From the NCBI RefSeq assembly GCF_002252525.1, contig NZ_NNRM01000012.1, positions 99,501 through 163,500 of the forward strand: a stretch of 64,000 nucleotides of DNA, read 5' to 3'. Under the pieces are notes generated by a model. That model made no database searches. It was not told where the DNA came from and saw only the letters and a list, made by a program, of their open reading frames with translations. Made by a program: the position numbers and the translations under genes. Source of the stretch: Brucella pseudogrignonensis (GTDB lineage Bacteria > Pseudomonadota > Alphaproteobacteria > Rhizobiales > Rhizobiaceae). Shown here piece by piece: positions 3,329-45,082 of this stretch (position 1 is the stretch's first letter; each line of letters opens with the position of its first letter).

Positions 3329-4120
3329 ATGGCGCGTTCAGCCCTTCTCAATGTAATGGTTCAGGCTGCTATGAAGGCCGGACGTGGCCTTGCGCGCGAT
3401 TTCGGCGAAGTGCAGAACCTTCAGGTCTCTCTCAAAGGTCCAGGCGATTACGTCAGCCAGGCCGACCGCAAAGCGGAAAAAGTCATCTACACCGAACTGA
3501 GCCGCGCCCGCCCGGATTTTGGCTTCCTGATGGAAGAATCGGGTGAGGTTGAATCCAAGGATGGACAGCATCGCTGGCTGGTCGATCCACTGGATGGCAC
3601 CACCAACTTCCTCCACGGTATTCCAATTTTTGCAGTCTCCATCGCTCTTGAGCGTCAGGGGCAGATCGTTGCTGGCGTTATCTACAATCCGGCAATGGAC
3701 GAACTTTATACCGCTGAACGTGGCGGTGGCGCATTCCTCAACGATCGCCGTCTGCGCGTCGCAGCCCGTAACAAACTCGTCGATTGCGTTATCGGCACCG
3801 GCATCCCGCATCTGGGTCGCCCCGGCCACGGCCATTACCTCGTCGAACTGCGCAACGTCATGGGTGAAACCGCTGGTATTCGCCGTATGGGTGCGGTTGC
3901 TCTCGATCTCGCGTATGTTGCTGCTGGTCGTCTCGACGGCTTCTGGGAAGACGGTATGCACCCTTGGGATCTCGGCGCAGGCATGTTGATGATCCGCGAA
4001 GCCGGTGGCTTTGTATCCGACAAAAAGGGCGGCCAGGACATTTTCGGCACCAAGACCATCGTTGCTGGCAATGAAATCATTCAGAAGGCATTGCTCAAGA
4101 CGGTCAACAAGCCGATTTAA
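3329..4120 (+). CDS. suhB: inositol monophosphatase family protein (SuhB-like)
   Basis: 263 residues, typical for the family of Mg-dependent, lithium-sensitive phosphatases. Metal-site motifs are visible: EESGE near residue 70, DPLDGTTNF near 86-94 and WDLGAGMLMIREAGG near 213-227. The family includes inositol-1-phosphatases, FBPase-like enzymes and SuhB, which in E. coli also acts in rRNA antitermination; the true substrate cannot be read here. AAAAAGGA precedes the ATG at 3329. A bidirectional hairpin follows at 4184. Confidence 0.9.
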   Translation: MARSALLNVMVQAAMKAGRGLARDFGEVQNLQVSLKGPGDYVSQADRKAEKVIYTELSRARPDFGFLMEESGEVESKDGQHRWLVDPLDGTTNFLHGIPIFAVSIALERQGQIVAGVIYNPAMDELYTAERGGGAFLNDRRLRVAARNKLVDCVIGTGIPHLGRPGHGHYLVELRNVMGETAGIRRMGAVALDLAYVAAGRLDGFWEDGMHPWDLGAGMLMIREAGGFVSDKKGGQDIFGTKTIVAGNEIIQKALLKTVNKPI

Positions 4121-4183
4121 GAAGCTTCGTAACGCTGTTGATCCGGTTTTATTTGCATCTGGGTCAACTTTTGAAGAATCGAC

Positions 4184-4217
4184 GAGAAGGCCGATCCAAT
4201 GATGGACCGGCCTTCTC
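4184..4217. terminator. bidirectional hairpin terminator
   Basis: Arms GAGAAGGCC / GGCCTTCTC around GATCCAATGATGGACC, followed by an AT-rich run. It lies between the convergent phosphatase gene and the small reverse-strand peptide gene and could serve both. Confidence 0.7.
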
Positions 4218-4251
4218 TATTTAATTTAAAGCTTTAGTATCAATAAAGCGA

Positions 4252-4317
4252 TTACCATTGACCGAGAAATTTACCGACAGCCTCAAGTATATTTCCAAGA
4301 ATATTCCACCAATGCAT
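4252..4317 (-). CDS. small amphipathic peptide, 21 residues (novel candidate)
   Basis: A 21-codon frame on the minus strand, ATG at 4317 and TAA at 4252. A strong ribosome site (GAGGGGA) sits six to seven bases before the ATG. The peptide reads MHWWNILGNIL then EAVGKFLGQW. Trp, Ile, Leu, Val and Phe recur every three to four positions, so a helix would have one hydrophobic face and a polar face carrying Glu12 and Lys16. Size and pattern recall phenol-soluble-modulin-like or short type I toxin peptides, but I recognise no homolog. It is followed by the 4184 hairpin and preceded by a long AT-rich promoter-like region. Function unknown. Confidence 0.55.
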   Translation of the reverse strand: MHWWNILGNILEAVGKFLGQW

Positions 4318-4614
4318 GGCAGTCCCCTCAAATAAAGTTGAATTTACAATTTAAAATTATCAAATTTCTGAAATATAAAAATAACAATATTTAAAATAAT
4401 TCATATTAACAATTATAAACAATAAAATCAGCCGATCCTAAAATAGGATATGGCAGCGCGAACAAATAATACCGCTCATTTACGAGTTTATGCTCTGTCG
4501 CAGTTCAGGCAATAATCTTCATAAAGCTGTGCAATTTTCTCGTTTCAGGTGATTCCGCTTCGCTAACGAATGAAGTAGGATTCTGTCCGAACACCCGACC
4601 ATGGAGCAGGACGC
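4318..4614. other. AT-rich intergenic region with a small inverted repeat
   Basis: This gap is strikingly AT-rich (roughly 4325-4435) compared with its GC-rich surroundings. ATCCTA-AAA-TAGGAT at 4435-4449 is an inverted repeat that could bind a regulator. The stretch must hold the promoters of both the small peptide gene (minus) and the membrane pair (plus). Confidence 0.5.
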
Positions 4615-5658
4615 ATGAGCGATTTGAGACTTTCACGGGAACGCCTTGACGATGCACGGGACTATGATCCTTACCGCCTGAGCAGCCCGAGAATTGTCAT
4701 TCTCTCCATGGTAATCTTTCTCATCATCGTCGCATTCCTAGCGGCAGTCCTGATGCGGCAGATCCATACATTCTTCGTCACCAATCCGGGTCTTAACGGC
4801 CTGATCTTCGGTGTGCTGCTCGTCGGCATCCTGCTTGCCTTCGGGCAGGTGCTGCGGCTGCTCCCGGAAATCCGCTGGGTCAATTCGTTCCGCGATGGCG
4901 AACGCGACGGTACCACCCGCCCGCCCGTGCTCCTTGCACCCATGCGAGCCTTGATCGGTCGCAGACAGTCGATGGCACTAACAACCACATCGACCCGATC
5001 CATTCTCGATTCGATTGCCACGCGCCTTGATGAAAGCCGCGATATTTCGCGCTATCTCATCGGCCTTCTGGTCTTTCTCGGCCTGCTTGGCACCTTCTGG
5101 GGCTTGCTTGAAACGGTTGGCTCCATCGGACAGACCATCCAGTCGCTCGATCCAAGCTCGGGCAGCACAACAGATGTGCTCGATTCGCTCAAAGCAGGGC
5201 TTCAGGCACCGCTTTCGGGCATGGGCACGGCCTTCTCCTCCTCGCTGTTTGGTCTTTCGGGATCGCTGATTCTCGGCTTCCTCGATCTTCAGGCTGGCCG
5301 CGCGCAAAACCGCTTCTATACCGAGCTTGAAAACTGGCTTTCCTCGGTCACAGACCTCGGCTCCGATCTTAGCACCGACGAAAGTCTCAATGGCGTTCGC
5401 AACCTCGCTGAGCGCGTACAGAACCTGCAAGGCGGTGACGCATCGAGCCAGCGCACATCAGCTGCTCTCGCCAACCTCGCCGAAGGCATTCAGGGGCTGG
5501 TTAAGAGTATGCGCAGCGAACAGCAGATGATGCGCGACTGGGTCGAGAAACAGGCAGATGAGCAAAAAGCCATCCGCGAAACGCTCGACCGTCTGAACAA
5601 GGCGATTGGCGCAAAATCCTCTGGCGAACGTCCGAACGACCGCACACGGTCGGAGTAA
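4615..5658 (+). CDS. MotA/TolQ/ExbB-like inner-membrane protein
   Basis: 347 residues with hydrophobic segments near 27-47, 60-80, 142-162 and 200-225, the arrangement of proton-channel subunits of the MotA/TolQ/ExbB superfamily. The C-terminal ~80 residues form a charged, probably coiled-coil tail in the cytoplasm. Its stop is followed after five bases by an OmpA/MotB-domain gene, so the two should form a stator-like pair linking proton flow to a peptidoglycan-bound partner. No flagellar or ton genes are nearby, so I infer an envelope function rather than motility. Confidence 0.8.
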   Translation: MSDLRLSRERLDDARDYDPYRLSSPRIVILSMVIFLIIVAFLAAVLMRQIHTFFVTNPGLNGLIFGVLLVGILLAFGQVLRLLPEIRWVNSFRDGERDGTTRPPVLLAPMRALIGRRQSMALTTTSTRSILDSIATRLDESRDISRYLIGLLVFLGLLGTFWGLLETVGSIGQTIQSLDPSSGSTTDVLDSLKAGLQAPLSGMGTAFSSSLFGLSGSLILGFLDLQAGRAQNRFYTELENWLSSVTDLGSDLSTDESLNGVRNLAERVQNLQGGDASSQRTSAALANLAEGIQGLVKSMRSEQQMMRDWVEKQADEQKAIRETLDRLNKAIGAKSSGERPNDRTRSE

Positions 5659-6832: not shown

Positions 6833-8680
6833 TTATTTACCGAAAACGCCTGCGCCTGCTTCAAATTGCAGCTTGGCGAGGCGGGCATAAATGCCGCCCT
6901 TCTCAACCAGCGTCTGATGCGTACCCTCTTCAACAATCTGGCCTTTGTCCAGAACCAGAATGCGGTCGGCTTTCAGAACCGTTGCCAAGCGATGCGCCAC
7001 AACGAGCGTTGTGCGATTATCCATGAGGCTATCAAGCGCTTTCTGCACCAGCATTTCACTTTCTGCATCAAGCGCCGAGGTGGCTTCATCCAGCAGCAGA
7101 ACGGGTGCCGCACGCAGGATCGCACGCGCAATGGCAATGCGCTGGCGCTGACCGCCTGAAAGCGTAACGCCGCGTTCGCCGACTTCCGTGTTATAGCCCT
7201 TGTCCAGCGCCATAATGAAGTCATGTGCGAGGGCTGCCCTTGCTGCGGCCTCTATTTCAGCATCGCTTGCACCGGGTTTACCGAAGCCGATATTCTCGCG
7301 AATGCTGGTGGCAAAGATCGCAACATCCTGCGGCACTACGGCAATGCGTTCACGCACCTTGGCAGGGTCGGCTTCAGGCAAGGCCACACCATCCATCAGC
7401 ACACGACCGGATTGCGGATCGTAATAGCGCATCACCAGCGAGAAAATCGTGGTTTTGCCGGCACCGGACGGGCCGACAATCGCAACCGTCTCACCGGGCT
7501 TTACAGTGAAGCTGACACCATTCAGCGACGGCGCGTCCGGACGCGTTGGATAAGAGAAATGCACCCCATCGAAGCTGATCTCGCCACGCGGCGGTTGTGG
7601 CAAAGCAACAGGGTTTGCAGGGGCGGAAATGCCAGGATTTTCATCGAGAATTTCTGCAAGCCGTTCGGTGGCACCCGCGGCCTGCGCAAGTTCACCGCCC
7701 ACTTCCGAAAGCGCGCCAAAAGCGCTGGCTGCAAAGACTGCATAAAGAACGAACTGGCCCAGCGTTCCTGCTGTCATTGTGCCGGAAAGCACATCACGAG
7801 AGCCGAACCAGAGCACGGCAACCACGCTGGAGAAGATCAGGAAAATCGCAAAGCCTGTCAGAATGGCGCGTGCTTTGATGGAGGAACGTGCCGCCTGATA
7901 GGCCTTCTCGACGGCATTGGCAAAACGCCCCACCACCATATTTTCGTTGGTGAAGGCCTGCAGCGTGCGCATCGCCCCGATCTGCTCACTGGCATAGGCA
8001 TTGGCATGTGCCAGCATATCCTGCGTCATGCGTGAGCGACGACGCACAGAACGACCAAAAGCGATCAACGGAATCACGATCAGCGGAATAGCCGCAATCA
8101 CAAGTGCGGAAAGCTTGGGGCTAGTGACAACCATCATGATGAGCGCGCCGATACCCAGAATCACATTGCGCAGCGCTACAGAGGCCGTAGCCCCTACAAC
8201 CGACTTGATCTGCGTGGTATCGACCGAAAGACGCGAGACGATCTCGCCCGACTGCGACCGATCAAAGAATTCCGGCGACAGGCTGGTCACATGGGAAAAG
8301 ACAGCATTGCGCAGATCTGCCACCACGCGCTCGCCCAGCGATATGACGAAGAAATAGCGCAGTCCCGATGCGAGCGCCAGAACCAGCGCCAGCGCCACCA
8401 GCATACCGAAATAGTTATTGACGAAGACCGCATTGGCGCCGGTGAAGCCATGATCGATCATACGGCGTACGGCAACCGGGACAGCAAGAGTCGTCACAGC
8501 AGCAAGAACCAGCGAGAACAGCGCTCCAATAACCAGAGGCTTGTAGCGCGAGAGGAAAGGAAGCATCCGCCTCAGTGGCTTCAATGAACGGCGCTTACGC
8601 CCTTCCTTAGCACCCTCCCCAGCCCCCTCTTGGGCATTCAATTCTGGATTCATGCGAATTTGACTGTCTCTGCTGGCCAT
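6833..8680 (-). CDS. ABC-type exporter, fused membrane and ATPase domains (MsbA-like)
   Basis: 615 residues from the ATG at 8680; a later ATG at 8653 is an alternative, and neither has a perfect ribosome site. After a charged N-terminal tail come about six membrane helices, then an ATPase with Walker [10 protein letters not shown], signature LSGGQRQR, Walker [13 protein letters not shown] and the H-loop VVAHRLAT. This half-transporter would dimerise and export lipids, drugs or peptides; the substrate cannot be told. It is divergent from rpmE with 169 bp between start codons. Confidence 0.9.
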
Positions 8681-8849
8681 TCTTGAGATTGCGCCCTTGT
8701 TATTAGCGTGCGCCTGATGTATAGGCTCGCCAACCCTTTTGGAAGCCGTTGCCGTCGGTAACGGGTCTTCATATCTGCCATTGGGCGAAAGTGCCGCAGT
8801 TTTAAACAAGAAACTGGGATTTTCACCCCAGACTTTCAGGATTGAGAAG

Positions 8850-9071
8850 ATGAAAGCCAGCATCCATCCCGACTACCACACCATCAAGGTCGTGATGACC
8901 GATGGCACTGAATACATGACCCGCTCGACCTGGGGCAAGGAAGGCGATACGATGAACCTCGATATCGATCCTACCACGCACCCAGCTTGGACCGGTGGTT
9001 CGCAGACCCTGCTCGATCGCGGCGGTCGCGTAACGAAGTTCAAGAACCGTTTCGGCAATCTCGGTATCTAA
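8850..9071 (+). CDS. rpmE: 50S ribosomal protein L31
   Basis: 73 residues starting [19 protein letters not shown]; the longer frame from 8739 has no family support. L31 sits at the central protuberance and the intersubunit bridge. There is no cysteine, so this is the zinc-independent form. A strong rho-independent terminator follows within 25 bases. Confidence 0.96.
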
Positions 9072-15512: not shown

Positions 15513-15610
15513 TTAAAACGCACATATCTTTGAAGGATAAGGCGTTTTAGAACATTTTTGTCTTAAATAACAAATAGCTTTGCTTAGTTTATAGCAAGAG
15601 CTTGAAAAGT

Positions 15611-15817
15611 GGCGACCACGACGACCGATGGTAGTGTTTGATCCCGGGAACCTACAACGTAGGTGGGCGCCATATGCGAAAGCCCACAGGCCTTCACAGG
15701 GACAGCTCCCTTAGAGATCAATAAGGCCCCGGGGATGCTGTTACACCTGTCGGGAAGCGCAGTACGCCGAGAACCTATATAGGCGCAGTCAGACCTTAGC
15801 GCCAGAGGCGTCAGCCC
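15611..15817 (-). ncRNA. ssrS: 6S RNA (ssrS), ends approximate
   Basis: Directly downstream of zapA and on its strand, the sequence folds as an extended stem. The apical part has GGCCUU...AAGGCC with an inner AGGGA-GCUG-UCCCU, and the 3' side holds a hairpin ACCUACGUUGUAGGU beside CCCGGGAUCAA, as in alphaproteobacterial 6S RNAs. 6S RNA mimics an open promoter and binds the sigma-70 holoenzyme. The zapA / ssrS / cyclo-ligase neighbourhood supports the call. The mature RNA is probably about 160 nt inside this span. Confidence 0.75.
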
Positions 15818-44837: not shown

Positions 44838-44927
44838 AAACCGCTCATAACATGCAGAAATTATAGCTGAAAGCCCGCATTGCGATCCCTTGCCCTTCCT
44901 GATGCAAACATCTATTGTCAGCCCTGC

Positions 44928-45023
44928 TCTAACGGGGTGCCATTCAATCTCTGAATGGCTGAGAAGCCGCACTCCGGCTAACCCGCTGAACCTGATCCGG
45001 TTTGTACCGGCGGAGGGATTAGA
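44928..45023 (+). ncRNA. TPP riboswitch (THI element)
   Basis: Classic THI-box order: CGGGGTGC, GGCTGAGA, ACCCGCTGAACCTGATCCGG, TACCGGCGGAGGGATT. The closing stem pairs TCTAA (44928) with TTAGA (45019). It lies 60 bp ahead of thiB; TPP binding should shut off the transporter. Confidence 0.97.
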
Positions 45024-45082
45024 TGCTGACCGATTTCCTAAGCGGCGCTCAATCTTTTCGAATAAAAGAAAGGAATGCCGTT

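What the first reader, a model, noticed from the sequence alone, without database searches (positions are those of the whole stretch)
4252..4317. Unannotated-looking 21-residue amphipathic peptide gene
A complete small frame on the minus strand has a strong GAGGGGA ribosome site at ideal spacing, a helix-forming amphipathic composition (three Trp, regular three-to-four spacing of Ile, Leu, Val and Phe), an AT-rich upstream region and a terminator behind. Such peptides can be cytolytic, toxin-like or membrane signals, and genes this short are usually missed.
Basis: partly seen in the sequence, partly recalled or inferred. Interest (0 to 1): 0.72.

Follow-up and report, generated by a model that had tools for sequence, protein, structure and literature searches.

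The report
Real 21-residue amphipathic membrane-type peptide gene
A tiny, easily missed gene in a bacterium of the Brucella/Ochrobactrum group encodes a 21-residue helix with a greasy side and a polar side; related species keep its protein sequence, so it looks like a real gene, probably acting on membranes, although what it does there is not known.

Summary
Window 4252-4317 (-) encodes MHWWNILGNILEAVGKFLGQW behind GAGGGG. Of 57 intergenic ATG frames of 18-35 aa in the window, it alone combines a 5-nt ribosome site with strong amphipathicity. Orthologues occur in 7 of 35 genus genomes, the window's own included, all between a suhB-like and a MotA/ExbB-like gene. Start, ribosome site, 21-23 residue length and hydrophobic pattern are kept; dN is below dS in 21 of 21 pairs. 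I conclude it is translated and selected; no expression data exist here. It sits in an AT-rich stretch: the gap is 494-535 bp in carriers, 137-229 bp in 25 non-carriers and 426 and 593 bp in two others that hold different, unconfirmed short frames. Presence takes five changes on the flank tree. An upstream tandem TTGNTATTTWTW repeat is clear in 6 of 7 carriers. No convincing relative was found in other genera, phages, plasmids or family libraries, only weak chance-level matches. Most likely it is an amphipathic helix acting at a membrane, perhaps like the type I toxin TisB. Toxicity, secretion and an antisense partner are untested. New family, known kind.

The parts
4252..4317 (-). 21-codon peptide gene, MHWWNILGNILEAVGKFLGQW, TAA stop
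   Evidence: orthologues in 7 of 35 genus genomes, own included; dN<dS in 21 of 21 pairs
4324..4329 (-). Shine-Dalgarno GAGGGG, 6 nt before the ATG; a G-rich site stands before the ATG in all 7 carriers
4352..4363 (-). downstream copy of the tandem repeat, TTGATAATTTTA, at -46; readable as an extended -10 (TGnTATAAT-like), inferred
4376..4387 (-). upstream copy of the tandem repeat, TTGTTATTTTTA, at -70; second promoter element or operator, inferred
4184..4217 (.). 15-bp hairpin between the peptide gene and suhB, likely shared 3' end
   Evidence: fold of the minus strand; similar GC-rich stems seen by eye in the other carriers
4121..4614 (.). intergenic stretch holding the AT-rich peptide module; about 340 bp longer than in most non-carriers
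3329..4120 (+). flanking suhB-like inositol monophosphatase gene, convergent
   Evidence: PF00459, E 7.3e-62; adjacency
4615..5658 (+). flanking MotA/TolQ/ExbB-like gene, divergent
   Evidence: PF01618, E 2.9e-4, 21 bits against a cut-off of 22.9; adjacency

Best explanation
Window 4252-4317 (-) is a genuine monocistronic gene for a leaderless 21-residue amphipathic helix. SHOWN by sequence: the coding frame is conserved as protein; it has a ribosome site and, in 6 of 7 carriers, a clear upstream repeat; a hairpin and the convergent suhB-like gene lie behind it; and it belongs to an AT-rich module that is present or absent between fixed neighbours. INFERRED: a short mRNA (about 160 nt) starts near the TGnTATAAT-like element and is translated. 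The peptide binds a membrane through its Trp/Ile/Leu/Val/Phe face. The narrow polar strip (N5, N9, E12, K16, Q20 in the window's peptide), with the invariant pair E12/K16 (i,i+4) and invariant G15, would support helix packing. At high level this would perturb or partly depolarise the cell's own membrane, in the manner described for TisB. The patchy, allele-like distribution fits a dispensable membrane-active peptide better than a housekeeping part.
For: 7 of 35 genus genomes match, own included. The profile gives the same seven at E 2e-14 to 2e-12, next best 0.19 (the seven built the profile, so only the gap below them is informative). ATG, ribosome site, stop (TAA in 6, TAG in G002) and 21-23 residues kept in the 7. 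M1, W3, E12, G15, K16 invariant. dN<dS in 21 of 21 pairs, which share branches; no indel in the first 20 codons; 4916 of 5000 column shuffles contain a stop and 0 of the other 84 reach the observed protein similarity. muH 0.49-0.66 with p <= 0.0022 for the six distinct peptides, net charge 0 to +1. Tandem upstream repeat 23-24 of 24 in 6 of 7 carriers between -71 and -45. The next gene behind it is the convergent suhB-like gene.
Against: No expression or toxicity data. No immunity gene, exporter or antitoxin was identified, and wider neighbourhoods of carriers and non-carriers were not compared. dN/dS rests on 20 codons with high dS, so each pair is weak alone. The peptides are near-neutral, whereas many lytic peptides are cationic (recalled). 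The repeat motif was read by eye from these same carriers, so its shuffle counts are not independent; G033 fits it poorly (21 of 24; 22 of 1000 shuffles reach it), G010 and G032 not at all (197 and 223 of 1000). Two or more matches to the half-site occur in 16 of 100 shuffles of the window. No conserved mRNA structure of type I style was seen (by eye; orthologous mRNAs were not folded).
Confidence: 0.6

Rival explanations
1. Type I toxin-antitoxin locus: the peptide is the toxin, silenced by a cis- or trans-encoded antisense RNA, and works on the cell's own inner membrane as described for TisB.
For: Size, amphipathic helix with a narrow polar strip carrying opposite charges, as described for TisB in PMC8309996 (passages); single-gene layout; patchy presence.
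Against: No antisense promoter is evident: 3 plus-strand promoter-like sites against 1.7 (sd 1.3) in shuffles. No NCBIfam match, and in Pfam only two weak matches (E 0.084 and 0.13), one member each.
Confidence: 0.3
2. Secreted surfactant or leaderless antimicrobial peptide (phenol-soluble-modulin-like or bacteriocin-like) used against competitors or for spreading.
For: Leaderless amphipathic helix of about 21 residues; patchy distribution; carriers that could be named are B. cytisi, B. rhizosphaerae and B. grignonensis, recalled as plant- or soil-associated species.
Against: No immunity or export gene in the 494-bp intergenic stretch. Near-neutral net charge. No NCBIfam match, only chance-level matches in Pfam and solved structures.
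Confidence: 0.25
3. Small regulatory membrane peptide that binds a neighbouring gene product (MotA/ExbB-like or OmpA-like envelope proteins).
For: Fixed position beside an envelope gene pair.
Against: suhB and the MotA-like gene lie together in 34 of 35 genus genomes while the peptide matches in 7.
Confidence: 0.2
4. Leader peptide or conserved non-coding RNA rather than a functional peptide.
For: A weak match to the Rfam small RNA ar35 covers 4181-4294 (24.1 bits, gathering 45, E 0.015). The minus strand folds better than its shuffles (z -4.4, 0 of 200), the longest helix being the 15-bp hairpin.
Against: The next gene behind it is convergent, so nothing to attenuate. Three ar35 copies over the cut-off lie elsewhere in the genome (121.9, 53.3, 49.5 bits) and this place ranks 13th of 23 matches. 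Of the six other carriers only the near-identical G024 repeats the weak match. Conservation follows codons.
Confidence: 0.05

Closest known systems
TisB (TisB/IstR-1 type I toxin, E. coli)
   Same: Short amphiphilic helix with a narrow polar strip of opposite charges (TisB features from passages of PMC8309996).
   Different: TisB is 29 aa with four charges on the strip; this peptide is 21 aa with one E/K pair, is Trp-rich, and has no known antisense RNA or SOS link. No direct sequence comparison with TisB was made.
Staphylococcal phenol-soluble modulins
   Same: Leaderless amphipathic helices of about 20 residues (recalled; papers seen only in the listings).
   Different: No family match; not shown to be secreted.
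Sinorhizobium meliloti SEP1 and other SEPs under 30 aa
   Same: Unannotated translated genes under 30 aa in a related alphaproteobacterium (passages of PMC10117765; SEP1 is given there as 23 aa, conserved in Rhizobiaceae).
   Different: The profile of this family gave no convincing relative among 394 family genomes; SEP1's sequence was not seen here, so the two were not compared directly.
Rfam ar35 small RNA
   Same: The part aligned with high confidence is the terminator-like hairpin.
   Different: Score far below the gathering cut-off; three copies over the cut-off lie elsewhere in the genome.

Membership tests
Type I toxin-antitoxin toxin | short hydrophobic or amphipathic membrane helix | tested here: met
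   by composition only: muH 0.49-0.66, p <= 0.0022 for six distinct peptides; membrane binding not tested
Type I toxin-antitoxin toxin | antisense RNA complementary to the toxin mRNA | tested here: inconclusive
   only chance-level plus-strand promoter-like sites; needs RNA data
Type I toxin-antitoxin toxin | growth inhibition when over-produced | not testable with these tools
   no bench data
Phenol-soluble modulin families | sequence membership in a curated model | tested here: not met
   NCBIfam: 0 families for 7 members at E<=10. Pfam: 2 weak unrelated families (E 0.084 and 0.13), one member each. That these libraries hold modulin models is recalled
Phenol-soluble modulin families | secretion by a dedicated exporter | not tested
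   an ABC transporter-like ORF (label by eye) lies at 6833-8863; carriers and non-carriers were not compared for it
Attenuator leader peptide | a regulated gene downstream on the same strand | tested here: not met
   next gene downstream is the convergent suhB-like gene
Rfam ar35 small RNA | score at or above the gathering cut-off | tested here: not met
   24.1 of 45 bits; copies over the cut-off elsewhere
Phage or plasmid cargo peptide | relatives in phages, viral contigs or plasmids | tested here: not met
   no match; 68 pattern matches but no confirmed relative; one member has a weak PHROGs match, E 0.057

The most novel reading that the evidence does not exclude
The suhB-MotA intergenic region of this genus is an exchange site at which related species keep, lose or swap a minimal (about 340 bp) module encoding short membrane peptides of unrelated sequence (a Trp-rich 21-mer in seven genomes, different hydrophobic short frames in two others). 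It would be one of the smallest competition or self-poisoning modules, moved by recombination through its conserved neighbours.
Probability: 0.2. Interest if true: 0.65.

Novelty: new member of a known kind. Interest (0 to 1): 0.45.

Why it matters
It adds a conserved 21-residue family, without a real match in the searched family libraries, to a size class that annotation usually drops (recalled), and gives natural carrier and non-carrier species with the same neighbouring genes in which its role can be compared. If it is membrane-active it would be a very small natural example of such a gene in Alphaproteobacteria.

Tried and rejected
Non-coding RNA, ar35: rejected. In one search the same stretch of other carriers drew weak matches to other unrelated RNA families (for example Qrr, frnS, MicC), all below gathering. 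Attenuator leader: rejected, next gene convergent. Start-codon hairpin control: the hairpin in the window (4322-4306) is not kept by eye in orthologues other than G024 (sequences); orthologues were not folded.

Relatives outside the genus. A scan of GTDB 220 contigs with two patterns of the family confirmed 3 loci, all Brucella. The profile in 394 family genomes gave 9 hits besides the window at E <= 0.1, best 0.009; all 9 were read. 4 of 9 lie in frames of 155 aa or more; G322 (short IFWQILESIGK frame, E 0.023) lies antisense to a 136-aa frame (phage-like by eye); G111 (stop inside), G393, G105 and G118 are short or broken frames with E 0.06-0.09 and were taken as chance. In 385 class genomes one further hit at E <= 0.02 (G812, E 0.009) is a 34-aa stop-to-stop frame whose only Met lies inside the match; taken as chance. 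suhB-MotA loci of other family genera: 20 of the 34 found were fetched, the best-scoring ones. Both genes were found in 18 of 20; gaps are 82-895 bp with GC 0.42-0.65 (the lowest GC is a 92-bp gap), against 0.33-0.42 in the seven carriers; the minus-strand frames with a ribosome-like site in the 7 gaps over 200 bp show no such peptide.

Horizontal transfer as the sole cause of patchiness: not required for most pairs. Between clades, without G033, intergenic identity (0.60-0.65) is near third-position identity of suhB (0.63-0.68). G033 stands apart (0.52-0.55 against 0.59-0.65), and for G002-G033 the contrast is large (0.55 against 0.82). G006 (filled) and G012 (empty) are sisters on the flank tree, with weak support (87/75), so loss or allele replacement is likely at least sometimes.

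The second short frame in G010 (36 aa) and G032 (29 aa): a G-H-x-x-x-D-x-L pattern by eye, but BLASTP finds no alignment and the codon signal is weak (33 of 84 nt identical; dN 1.16, dS 1.60). A search of the 36-mer in 394 family genomes gave 18 hits at E <= 1, best 0.017; of these only one locus (L096) was looked at, the rest were not read. Kept only as a lead. G009 was left out of the tree because its MotA-like frame is broken, and G022 has no MotA match (72% complete), so the tree has 33 of 35.

Full report
WHAT IS THERE. On the minus strand, window 4317-4252 reads ATG to TAA and encodes MHWWNILGNILEAVGKFLGQW. GAGGGG ends 6 nt before the ATG. The gene lies between a suhB-like inositol monophosphatase gene (3329-4120 +, PF00459) and a MotA/TolQ/ExbB-like gene (4615-5658 +, PF01618, 21 bits against a cut-off of 22.9), convergent with the first and divergent from the second. 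A 15-bp hairpin (4217-4184) lies between the peptide gene and suhB; the terminator scan did not list it. Among 57 ATG frames of 18-35 aa outside long ORFs in the 64-kb window, 2 have a 5-nt Shine-Dalgarno match and only this one also has a hydrophobic moment of 0.45 or more.

IS IT A GENE. A six-frame search of 35 genus genomes found 7 with a match, the window's own included; six at E <= 1e-4 and G033 at 0.48. A profile built from the seven returns them at E 2e-14 to 2e-12, the next best being 0.19 (members score high by construction). All seven lie at the same place, with ATG, ribosome site, 21-23 codons and a stop: MHWWNILGNILEAVGKFLGQW (G000, G024), MHWWNILGKVLEAIGKALSYF (G015), MHWWNVVWQVLEVIGKFLSSF (G006), MHWWQILGQILEAIGKALGQLG (G016), MNWWNILGNILEVLGKFPGQL (G002), MFWLRIVGQIFEAVGKALQYISG (G033). 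M1, W3, E12, G15 and K16 are invariant. dN is below dS in 21 of 21 pairs (0.00-0.56 against 0.20-1.57). In 5000 column shuffles 4916 create a stop and none of the remaining 84 reaches the observed protein similarity. The two differences between G000 and G024 in the frame are synonymous. There is no indel in the first 20 codons, while the intergenic alignments of carriers, apart from the near-identical G000/G024 pair, hold 4-141 gap columns. The six distinct peptides have a hydrophobic moment of 0.49-0.66, each beyond its own shuffles (p <= 0.0022), with net charge 0 to +1. I conclude that the frame is translated and selected as a protein; each pairwise ratio alone is weak because the gene is short and dS is high.

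CONTROL REGION. A search of the window for TTGNTATTTTTA with one mismatch gives two matches, both upstream of this gene, 24 nt apart (4387-4376 and 4363-4352; mean 0.61 in shuffles, two or more in 16 of 100). In 6 of 7 carriers a pair of such elements scores 23-24 of 24 between -71 and -45 with 23-24 nt spacing (0-1 of 1000 shuffles). G033 is weak (21 of 24, 22 of 1000), and the long gaps of G010 and G032 lack it (197 and 223 of 1000). The motif was read by eye from the same carriers, so these counts are descriptive. The downstream copy can be read as an extended -10 element; this is inference.

DISTRIBUTION. 34 of 35 genus genomes have the MotA-like gene and the 34 have suhB beside it. The gap is 494-535 bp in the seven carriers, 426 (G032) and 593 (G010) in two others, and 137-229 bp in the remaining 25 (for G009 estimated from a partial match). 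On a tree of the flanking genes (33 genomes) presence of the peptide takes five changes. G006 (filled) and G012 (empty) are sisters with weak support (87/75). G002 and G033, close in suhB, are far apart in the gap. Three carriers could be named: G002 is Brucella cytisi, G016 B. rhizosphaerae and G006 B. grignonensis (3060 of 3060 bases identical in each case). In 20 of 34 loci from other family genera, both genes were found in 18 and no such module was seen. The profile found no convincing relative in 394 family genomes or 385 class genomes or viral contigs, and the single peptide none in phages or plasmids. Library matches were at chance level: NCBIfam none, Pfam two (E 0.084, 0.13), PHROGs one (E 0.057), PDB sequences one (E 0.33).

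A LEAD. In G010 and G032 the long gap contains, on the same strand, other short hydrophobic frames of 36 and 29 codons. A profile of the two returns these two in the genus, by construction, and nothing else better than E 0.066. BLASTP does not align them and the codon evidence is weak. If real, the site carries different small peptides in different species.

HOW IT PROBABLY WORKS. A leaderless helix of about 21 residues with a wide hydrophobic, Trp-containing face and a narrow polar strip holding one E/K pair is suited to lie in or across a membrane. [quoted passage not shown] I favour an action on the producing cell's own membrane, because the intergenic stretch contains neither exporter nor immunity gene and the net charge is near zero. 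A secreted surfactant or antimicrobial role and a regulatory role remain open. None of these steps beyond conservation of the coding frame is shown.

NOVELTY. Text search for four strings of the family found 0 papers. Searches on Brucella/Ochrobactrum small proteins, type I toxins and modulins listed none on this gene by title and abstract start (listings, plus passages of PMC8309996 and PMC10117765). I place it as a new family of a known kind, short membrane-type peptides.

Noticed in passing
L052 (G010) and L036 (G032), suhB-MotA gap: Different short hydrophobic minus-strand frames (36 and 29 aa) in the gap where seven relatives carry the Trp-rich peptide.
   Followed up: partly
window 15610-15768 (-): 6S RNA (Rfam RF00013, 73.8 bits).
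   Followed up: no
window 44923-45035 (+): TPP riboswitch (Rfam RF00059, 74.8 bits).
   Followed up: no
L006 380-431 and L002 504-560: Partial matches to Rfam BASRCI408 (Brucella sRNA CI408; E 9e-7 and 4e-5, far below gathering) upstream of suhB; the L006 stretch has a second 88% copy in L050, so it may be a repeat element.
   Followed up: partly
L054 (G009): The MotA-like gene matches in two separate pieces, so it is broken or misassembled in that incomplete genome.
   Followed up: no
window 6833-8863 (-): ORF of 676 aa that looks like an ABC transporter by eye (no family search); not compared between carriers and non-carriers.
   Followed up: no
suhB-MotA gaps of the genus: By eye, 20 aligned non-carriers fall into terminator types gcccc/cggggc and agcgcg/cgcgct, while carriers of different clades share a ggccgagc/gctcggcc type, as if filled and empty gaps were distinct alleles.
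   Followed up: partly
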